A stretch of 6,274 nucleotides of DNA, taken from contig WQXD01000227.1 of assembly GCA_009785015.1 (NCBI GenBank), positions 1 through 6,274 on the forward strand, in the 5' to 3' direction. The notes under the pieces were generated by a model. It was not told where the DNA came from and made no database searches. It saw only the letters and a program-made list of their open reading frames with translations. The translations under genes and the position numbers were made by a program. This document shows, one piece after another, positions 5,742 through 6,185 of the stretch. Position 1 is the first letter of the stretch. Each line of letters begins with the position of its first letter. This DNA is from Oscillospiraceae bacterium (GTDB lineage: Bacteria; Bacillota_A; Clostridia; Oscillospirales; WRJC01).

Positions 5742-5793
5742 TGAACAAAGGCTCCTTTTTCAAAGGAGCTGTCAGCGCAGCTGACTGAGGATT
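5742..5793 (+). repeat. left terminal inverted repeat with two tandem hairpins
   Basis: This 52-bp arm is the reverse complement of 6134-6185 except at 5760. It begins TGAACAAAGG and ends ACTGAGGATT. Hairpin 1 (5751-5769) pairs GCTCCTTT with AAAGGAGC around a TTC loop. Hairpin 2 (5771-5785) pairs GTCAGC with GCTGAC around GCA. The mismatch with the other arm lies in the loop of hairpin 1. The end of the arm carries a GAGG that can serve as a ribosome-binding site for the enclosed gene. Confidence 0.95.
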
Positions 5794-5801
5794 GAGGATT
5801 T

Positions 5802-6155
5802 ATGATACCAAGAAATAAAACGCTGAGAACTCGTTCAATCGAGCTTCGTAACAATGCTACAAAACAAGAAAATCACTTGTGGTATGATTTTCTAAAAAAG
5901 TGCCCCGTGCAGTTTTACAGGCAGCGAATCATCGGCAACTATATCGTTGATTTTTATTGCCCCAAGGCAAAATTGGTGATCGAGCTTGACGGGTCGCAGC
6001 ACTACGAAAAGGAAACGGCGGAATACGACAGGGTAAGGACGGAATATTTGAACGCGCTGGGGCTTCGAGTCATTCGATTCACGAACAGGGACATAGATGG
6101 CAACTTCAACGGCGTTTGTCAAATTGTCGAAGGAATCCTCAGTCAGCTGCGCTGA
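5802..6155 (+). CDS. DUF559 (Vsr-like) endonuclease-domain protein
   Basis: This 117-residue protein is a nearly complete DUF559 domain, related to very-short-patch-repair (Vsr) and PD-(D/E)XK-type nucleases. The family pattern is clear: NNATKQENHLW (17-27), FYRQRIIGNYIVDFYC (38-53), LVIELDGSQHY (58-68), YDRVRTEYLNALGLRVIRFTN (75-95, split here at YDRVR and RVIRFTN). Glu23, Asp50, Glu61, Asp63 and His67 are the candidate catalytic or metal-binding residues and all look intact. The ATG at 5802 is the only upstream start, because an in-frame TGA lies at 5793-5795. GAGG sequences at 5787-5790 and 5794-5797 are possible ribosome-binding sites; the first is 11 nt away and lies inside the left inverted repeat. 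The last codons (LSQLR) and the stop lie inside the right repeat. It is read opposite to the sugar cluster. It could be the mobility or maintenance protein of the flanking-repeat element, or a passenger. Its DNA target and function are unknown. Confidence 0.85.
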   Translation: MIPRNKTLRTRSIELRNNATKQENHLWYDFLKKCPVQFYRQRIIGNYIVDFYCPKAKLVIELDGSQHYEKETAEYDRVRTEYLNALGLRVIRFTNRDIDGNFNGVCQIVEGILSQLR

Positions 6156-6185
6156 CAGCTCCTTTGGAAAAGGAGCCTTTGTTCA
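6134..6185 (-). repeat. right terminal inverted repeat with two tandem hairpins
   Basis: This arm is the reverse complement of the left arm at 51 of 52 positions. It contains the same two hairpins in mirrored order: GTCAGC/GCTGAC around TGC (6142-6156) and GCTCCTTT/AAAGGAGC around GGA (6158-6176). The final codons and TGA stop (6153-6155) of the DUF559 gene lie inside it. The outer hairpin is followed by CTTTGTT, so it might act as a weak terminator, but the T-tract is poor. Confidence 0.95.

What the first reader, a model, noticed from the sequence alone, without database searches (positions are those of the whole stretch)
5742..6185. DUF559 nuclease gene tightly enclosed by near-perfect 52-bp inverted repeats: a possible minimal mobile element without a transposase
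Seen: 51/52-bp inverted repeats enclose a single 117-residue nuclease-domain gene in 444 bp, with almost no spare DNA. Known: DUF559 belongs with Vsr/PD-(D/E)XK-like nucleases, and palindromic repeat families such as REPINs depend on a nuclease-type protein (RAYT). Inference: this could be an analogous selfish unit in which a DUF559 protein mobilises or maintains its own hairpin repeats, or a homing-like element.
Basis: partly seen in the sequence, partly recalled or inferred. Interest (0 to 1): 0.78.

Follow-up and report, generated by a model that had tools for sequence, protein, structure and literature searches.

The report
Nuclease gene enclosed by triplex-like repeats
A tiny bacterial gene for a DNA-cutting enzyme sits between two mirror-image DNA hairpins that are scattered through related genomes, and the pair behaves like a minimal jumping gene whose ends look able to fold into a three-stranded helix.

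Summary
In detail: 51/52-nt inverted repeats enclose one DUF559 gene (PF04480, 105 bits). It is not a local oddity.

Each arm is two hairpins plus a purine tail. The tail follows the outer hairpin's purine strand in mirror order, the rule of an antiparallel purine triplex (7.38 of 8 triads; 5.18 when tails are shuffled). The arms are thus a two-hairpin form of the known "intrastrand triplex" (PIT/TM) repeats, for which the one paper I read on them reports no mobility gene.

In 196 Clostridia genomes arms occur in 28/28 with a stand-alone DUF559 gene and 22/168 others; 27/28 loci have an arm within 150 bp of the gene. Ten of 12 other genera sampled also have such motifs beside DUF559 (E. coli ycjD included).

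The window's own arm recurs at dozens of places in related genomes. In a better-sampled genus the full unit lies at a gene junction that is bare in more distant species, and gene-less inverted pairs (108-126 bp) are dispersed.

Best reading: a REPIN-like mobile element in which a Vsr-type nuclease replaces the RAYT transposase. That the nuclease itself moves the repeats is inferred, not shown.

The parts
5747..5750 (+). left outer boundary AAAG (family consensus WWAG just outside the first stem)
   Evidence: 102 ends of 51 units: -1 G 80/102, -2 A 63/102, -3 A or T 88/102, -4 A or T 84/102; no clear preference from -5 outward
5751..5769 (+). left arm, stem 1: GCTCCTTT-TTC-AAAGGAGC
   Evidence: models R2/R3 hit 5750-5795
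5770..5785 (+). left arm, stem 2 (linker hairpin) TGTCAGC-GCA-GCTGAC
5786..5793 (+). left arm, purine tail TGAGGATT; mirrors stem-1 strand AAAGGAGC by the purine-triplex rule
   Evidence: rule tested on 146 arms
5794..5801 (+). GAGGATTT, repeats the tail and offers GAGG as a possible ribosome-binding site for the ORF
   Evidence: read from sequence; function inferred
5802..6155 (+). DUF559 nuclease gene, 117 aa, Vsr-like PD-(D/E)XK fold; residues E23, D50, E61, D63 (invariant in 38 proteins) and H67 (nearly so) present
6134..6176 (-). right arm, same three parts inverted (tail 6134-6141, stem 2 6142-6157, stem 1 6158-6176); [quoted passage not shown]
6177..6180 (-). right outer boundary CTTT (AAAG on the - strand)
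5747..6180 (.). whole unit, about 434 bp (51 units in the family: 426-584, median 461, stem to stem)

Best explanation
The unit is the gene-bearing member of a REPIN-like mobile repeat family. The ends are arms of two hairpins and a purine tail that can fold, on the purine-rich strand, into an intrastrand triplex; outside them lies WWAG. The DUF559 protein, a Vsr-type nuclease, is the cognate enzyme: it recognises the folded arm when the DNA is single-stranded (for example at a replication fork) and cuts near the WWAG foot, so that a unit, or a gene-less inverted pair acting in trans, is copied into new intergenic places without target duplication. Shown by comparison: anatomy, triad rule, gene-arm association, dispersal, presence at sites that are bare in related species, gene-less copies. 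Inferred: recognition and cutting of arms by DUF559, the route of insertion, triplex formation in cells.
Against: 22/168 Clostridia genomes without stand-alone DUF559 carry arms, five of them 10 or more; of the six such genomes found with R2, five gave no match to the protein and one a weak partial match (E 0.10). E. coli rows without ycjD still show 2-6 places that match the ycjD-region query, which I take to be triplex motifs but read in one case only (L217). Y1 association reaches p 0.044 at 10 or more arms. 29/81 loci have no scanner hit within 150 bp. 33 of 49 distal arms best match another genome's DUF559 arms. Holder et al. saw the triplex in vitro but no stable triplex in vivo. Association is correlative, genomes share ancestry, and many are draft metagenome assemblies. 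The window's own site could not be compared with an empty one.
Confidence: 0.7

Rival explanations
1. Passenger model: triplex repeats are spread by another agent (slippage, recombination or an unlinked enzyme) and the DUF559 gene is a homing-like parasite that prefers to sit between them.
For: Arms occur without stand-alone DUF559 in 22/168 genomes and E. coli rows lacking ycjD still match motif-like places; DUF559 is related to a homing endonuclease.
Against: All 28 genomes with stand-alone DUF559 have arms, and 24 of 29 genomes with 10 or more arms have the gene; distal arms resemble their own genome's DUF559 arms more than chance; the gene-less pair at L025 1698-1812 starts its spacer ATTCATTATGAA like the DUF559 unit, as a deletion derivative would.
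Confidence: 0.2
2. REP/RAYT or IS200/IS605 system: the arms are REPs moved by a Y1 (HuH) transposase.
For: Inverted pairs with 14-30 bp spacers, no general target duplication and a tetranucleotide at the hairpin foot resemble REPINs; weak Y1 association at 10 or more arms, p 0.044.
Against: The enclosed gene is DUF559, not Y1; Y1 genes occur in 34/52 genomes with R2 arms and 84/144 without, p 0.41.
Confidence: 0.04
3. Terminator/attenuator model: arms are transcription signals of a fixed host or defence gene.
For: 36 of 45 arms in G007 lie outside long ORFs; arms can form RNA hairpins; the tail can serve as ribosome-binding site.
Against: Unit-only homology between loci with different flanks; control ORFs rarely have inward arms on both sides (1/73); mirror rather than reverse-complement covariation of the tail; an earlier study found no promoter or terminator activity of the E. 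coli motif (as reported by Holder et al.).
Confidence: 0.05
4. Chance palindrome around an unrelated gene.
For: None.
Against: Recurrence in related genomes and within 250 bp of the gene in 28 of 28 loci of the second sample; the scanner finds 0 such motifs in one dinucleotide shuffle of each of the 81 loci.
Confidence: 0.01

Closest known systems
Intrastrand triplex motifs (PIT elements of Hoyne and Maher; TM of Holder et al. 2015, PMC4666352)
   Same: Hairpin plus purine third strand in mirror order; tens of copies per genome; inverted pairs; in E. coli the five pairs are always type A + type B, as all 16 tails-in pairs read in G007 join a C-type and a G-type arm.
   Different: Clostridial arms carry a stem-loop linker (16 nt in the window) instead of a 1-6 nt loop; the paper found no mobility gene near the motif, whereas here a DUF559 gene lies between arms.
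REPIN/RAYT systems
   Same: Low-copy nuclease gene flanked by arms (1-4 DUF559 matches per genome in 12 genomes), many gene-less inverted pairs, mainly intergenic, no general target duplication.
   Different: Enzyme is a Vsr-like PD-(D/E)XK protein, not a Y1 HuH transposase; ends have a triplex-type tail; boundary WWAG, not the GTAG or CGTC tag (tags from the title and abstract of PMC3733652).
Vsr-like homing endonucleases (I-Bth0305I)
   Different: The unit is intergenic, with its own repeated ends, and its relatives lie at different sites; intron or intein hosting is recalled for homing enzymes.
E. coli YcjD / N. gonorrhoeae NGO0050 (3hrl)
   Same: Same domain family; the E. coli gene and the gonococcal DUF559 gene examined have triplex motifs within 500 bp.
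   Different: I found no report of their function in the passages and listings seen; motifs have 3-nt linkers and the scanner hits lie on one side only.

Membership tests
DUF559 (PF04480) | score above the curated cut-off | tested here: met
   105.2 bits vs 20.6
DUF559 (PF04480) | Vsr-like PD-(D/E)XK fold | tested here: met
Intrastrand triplex motif (PIT/TM) | stem plus third strand obeying purine triads | tested here: met
   window arms GCTCCTTT/AAAGGAGC with tail TGAGGATT; family 7.38 of 8 triads, shuffled 5.18, 0/2000
Intrastrand triplex motif (PIT/TM) | loops of 1-6 nt between the three strands (ITxF definition) | tested here: not met
   the second loop of the window's arms is a 16-nt stem-loop; E. 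coli, Neisseria and most other genera scanned have 3-4 nt, Shinella 14
Intrastrand triplex motif (PIT/TM) | folds as a triplex in vitro | not testable with these tools
   needs CD or NMR on the arm oligonucleotide
REPIN/RAYT | Y1 HuH transposase partner | tested here: not met
   enclosed gene matches DUF559; Y1 not associated with presence of arms, p 0.41, weakly with 10 or more arms, p 0.044
REPIN/RAYT | many inverted pairs with short spacers, gene flanked by arms | tested here: met
   16 tails-in pairs with 14-30 bp spacers plus one unit in 800 kb of G007; not counted in the window's own genome, which is not held
REPIN/RAYT | GTAG or CGTC tag at the palindrome foot | tested here: not met
   foot is WWAG
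DDE-type IS or MITE | target-site duplication | tested here: not met
   51 units: matches of 3 nt 10 vs 7.9, of 4 nt 2 vs 2.2 shuffled; one locus has a 9-nt match
Homing endonuclease | cleaves the empty allele of its own site | not testable with these tools
   needs biochemistry
Anti-phage defence gene | member of a known system | tested here: inconclusive
   only partial matches to nuclease domains of longer proteins (best 3.6e-8 to DpdF, 56 residues)

The most novel reading that the evidence does not exclude
DUF559 nucleases are the missing enzymes of the intrastrand-triplex repeats spread over many bacterial phyla. Together they form a class of transposon of its own, with a Vsr-type nuclease as the only protein and a DNA triple helix as the recognised end, whose gene-less pairs parasitise the gene-bearing units.
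Probability: 0.5. Interest if true: 0.93.

Novelty: new variant of a known kind. Interest (0 to 1): 0.85.

Why it matters
[quoted passage not shown] This work names a candidate enzyme, DUF559, a family that Pfam still lists as of unknown function and that includes E. coli YcjD. If true it gives a protein-specific test of whether DNA triplexes act in bacterial cells, adds a second protein family beside RAYT that maintains palindromic repeat populations, and explains many small intergenic repeats in gut Clostridia.

Tried and rejected
Own-genome search: no genome is held for the window. Rfam: no match in the window up to E 1. E. coli ycjD as a clean empty site: rejected, because the three strains read without it carry an efflux operon next to sapF instead (PMC12817139, passages, names it eefRABCD). 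Empty site for the window itself: in the four genomes searched only the arms and the unit match. First covariance model R1 was useless (4 base pairs). The pair classification was wrong (hits sorted by strand) and was replaced. Target-site duplications: not above shuffles, except one locus (apparently L060) with a 9-nt match. Y1 transposase as partner: not associated with presence of arms. A TM site of E. coli (ypfG-tkt) was queried but not compared base by base. Watson-Crick pairing of the tail with the purine strand itself exceeded shuffles over all loci (0.76 vs 0.54 of 8; 5/2000) but fell below them within loci. Sequence strings of the arms in the paper library: 22 papers, of which the 15 listed have titles unrelated to bacterial repeats.

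Papers: PMC4666352 (abstract, sections 15 and 18, part 1 of section 20, passages); PMC12817139, PMC1189080 and PMC8044849 (passages only); all others search listings with the start of the abstract. What I say about absence from print rests in an open-access library; the papers of Hoyne and Maher were not read. REP, IS605 and homing biology not cited is recalled.

'Stand-alone DUF559' means E <= 1e-12 (28 genomes); the 25 genomes with weaker matches, many of them partial or inside long proteins, were counted as without. The second sample takes one locus per genome; L091 in it is the same locus as L024 of the first set, so the 109 genes hold one twice. The 15 R3 seed arms come from the first set. 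Arm counts per genome are capped by the number of candidates scored (about 30 in the class search, 150). The cross-genus set is one record for each of the 12 genera in the 30 rows shown (of 40 records), with an E. coli laboratory strain standing for Escherichia; several of the genera had been looked at before.

Full report
What is there. The window carries 52-nt inverted repeats, 51/52 matched, at 5742-5793 and 6134-6185 around one 117-aa ORF. The ORF is DUF559 (PF04480, 105 bits). Each arm folds as two consecutive hairpins. The rest of the window looks like a sugar-utilisation cluster: melibiase family, DUF4432, SIS and a weak match to solute-binding proteins. No whole genome is held for it.

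The arm is a family. A scan of genome contigs for relatives of the protein alone gave 80 loci (best 80 of 562), 78 of them in assemblies labelled Clostridia or other Firmicutes groups. Many showed the same architecture on their flanks: stem 1, a short joint, stem 2, and a purine tail facing the gene; with a scanner for hairpin plus mirror tail, 52 of 81 loci (window included) have at least one such motif within 150 bp. A covariance model of the arm (R2; clean rebuild R3) was searched on the 81 loci. Of the best 150 of 271 R3 hits, 105 lie within 150 bp of the gene (24,014 bases), 23 between 150 bp and 1 kb, and 22 beyond 1 kb (284,931 bases), about 57-fold by density (base counts); at most 15 of them are seeds of the model. 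In a second sample of 28 loci taken by Pfam profile, one per genome, 27 have an arm within 150 bp, 18 have inward arms on both sides, and all 28 have one within 250 bp. One of these (TWA4) is also in the first set. With my scanner, 45 of 109 DUF559 genes have inward arms on both sides within 150 bp against 1 of 73 control ORFs at least 1 kb away (Fisher 3e-11); on at least one side 84 of 109 against 6 of 73.

The tail follows a triplex rule. Reading the purine strand of stem 1 backwards predicts the tail: G to G, A to A or T, C to T. Over 47 distinct stem-tail combinations (146 of 150 arms usable) the rule holds at 7.38 of 8 positions, against 5.18 when tails are shuffled (0 of 2000 shuffles reach it). 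Shuffling only within a locus, which controls for kinship, gives 7.62 against 6.78 (32 loci, 78 arms; 0 of 2000). Watson-Crick pairing of the tail with the 5' strand of stem 1 shows little excess (3.62 vs 3.46; 175 of 2000 reach it) (same result with R2). Pairing with the purine strand itself is rare (0.76 of 8), above shuffles over all loci and below them within loci. At the outermost pair, C goes with T in 16 of 16 combinations and G with G in 30 of 30. A mirror relation cannot come from ordinary copying; it is what an antiparallel purine-motif triplex, or a protein that reads the two strands side by side, would demand. In the dispersed variant GCTTCTCCT/AGGAGAGGC with tail TGGTGAGGT the tail follows the purine strand at a G-T wobble (that scanner requires a mirror tail, so it shows the variant but does not test the rule).

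Link to known repeats. Intrastrand triplex repeats are known in bacteria: Holder et al. 2015 (PMC4666352) describe 23 copies in E. coli MG1655, triplex formation in vitro but no stable triplex in vivo, five inverted type A + type B pairs, and state that no gene for mobility was found near them. E. coli ycjD, its DUF559 gene, is followed directly by such motifs in the two strains read. One record for each of 12 genera outside Clostridia gave scanner hits within 500 bp of the gene in 9 (Neisseria, Photobacterium, Deinococcus, Azospirillum, Sphingomonas, Sinorhizobium, Synechocystis, Shinella, Escherichia); density was 1.61 per kb within 150 bp (gene included), 0.83 at 150-500, 0.67 at 500-1000 and 0.07 per kb beyond 1 kb. 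The model R2 adds Novosphingobium, with inward arms on both sides, so 10 of 12. The two others, Picosynechococcus and Pseudanabaena, are below threshold, though short-stem versions are visible by eye in Pseudanabaena and in a second Picosynechococcus strain. Shinella carries the two-hairpin form.

Co-occurrence. Among 196 Clostridia genomes, 28 have a stand-alone DUF559 gene (E <= 1e-12). R3 arms occur in 28 of 28 and in 22 of 168 others (Fisher 1e-20); 10 or more arms in 24 of 28 and 5 of 168. As a control, Y1 transposases are found in 34 of 52 genomes with R2 arms and 84 of 144 without (p 0.41; at 10 or more arms p 0.044). Arms far from the gene resemble the DUF559 arms of their own genome: 16 of 49 best match it, 4.1 expected, 3 of 5000 permutations reach this. 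Shared ancestry is only partly controlled.

Dispersal and movement. The window's own arm matches the four genomes of the genus of its closest protein relative at up to 100% over 53 bp: 92 matches in G001, 44 in G222, 41 in G223, 4 in G221, many copies matching both arms. In 800 kb of G007, 45 arms form 16 tails-in pairs of 108-126 bp with 14-30 bp spacers, 4 tails-out pairs, one DUF559 unit and 3 unpaired arms; 36 of 45 lie outside ORFs of 150 aa or more. All 16 tails-in pairs join one C-type and one G-type arm (read from the sequences), like the type A + B pairs of E. coli. In the genus of G007 (16 genomes, 14 read at the site) the unit sits at one gene junction in 2 genomes. Gene-less pairs sit there in 3 others, other repeats in 2, a bare junction of 26-29 bp in 5; in the last 2 the gap is 56 bp (measured from an anchor that ends 27 bp early) and 165 bp, without arms to my eye. 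A neighbouring gene-less pair is present in 4 genomes, replaced by a different pair in one, and missing in others, with a 3-bp gap in one. Between loci, homology of units often stops at the arms: for example L067/L117, 414 bp at 88.6%, and L103/L121, 541 bp at 86.5%. Fifty-one units with both arms (of 116 loci examined) are 426-584 bp; the conserved boundary is WWAG; target duplications do not exceed shuffles except for one 9-nt match.

Reading. The simplest account is a REPIN-like family: a cognate nuclease gene between two arms, and many gene-less pairs that spread in trans. The ends differ from REPs by the triplex rule, and the enzyme is unrelated to RAYT. Against it stand genomes with arms but no stand-alone DUF559, E. 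coli lineages that appear to keep motifs without ycjD, and the lack of any biochemistry. A passenger role of DUF559 is the strongest rival. No paper in the library held both 'intrastrand triplex' and 'DUF559' (33 papers with either).

Noticed in passing
L234, L235, L236 (genus of G007), gene junction: A different repeat family (GTAGGGGCGG...CCGCCCGTA) occupies the same intergenic junction in sister species, so the junction collects several kinds of repeats.
   Followed up: no
G007 contigs C1-C3: All 16 tails-in gene-less pairs join one C-type and one G-type arm, while several full units are C/C or G/G (the window is G/G). The reason is unknown.
   Followed up: partly
window 5786-5801 and 6134-6155: The arms supply both a possible ribosome-binding site (GAGG) and the stop codon and last residues (LSQLR) of the nuclease.
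   Followed up: partly
L205, L206 (phage records MT835749.1, MT835756.1), L134-L202: DUF559 genes occur on two human-gut phage records, and a stem-1 pattern of the arms in 69 stretches of viral contigs, a possible route between hosts.
   Followed up: partly
L003, L010: Two Dehalococcoidia assemblies carry a Clostridia-type DUF559 gene, one with five alternating arms in a row beside it; transfer or contaminated bins.
   Followed up: no
L213, L214, L218 vs L216: E. coli lineages carry either ycjD with triplex motifs or an efflux operon downstream of sapF.
   Followed up: partly
NZ_CP135245.1 300452-300490 (hit H133): A 39-bp exact match to the E. coli triplex-motif site lies on a 373-kb plasmid; Holder et al. 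reported no association of the motif with plasmids.
   Followed up: no
model m4caf56312ca5: The DUF559 fold also matches proteins of the Toxoplasma and Tetrahymena mitochondrial ribosomes.
   Followed up: no
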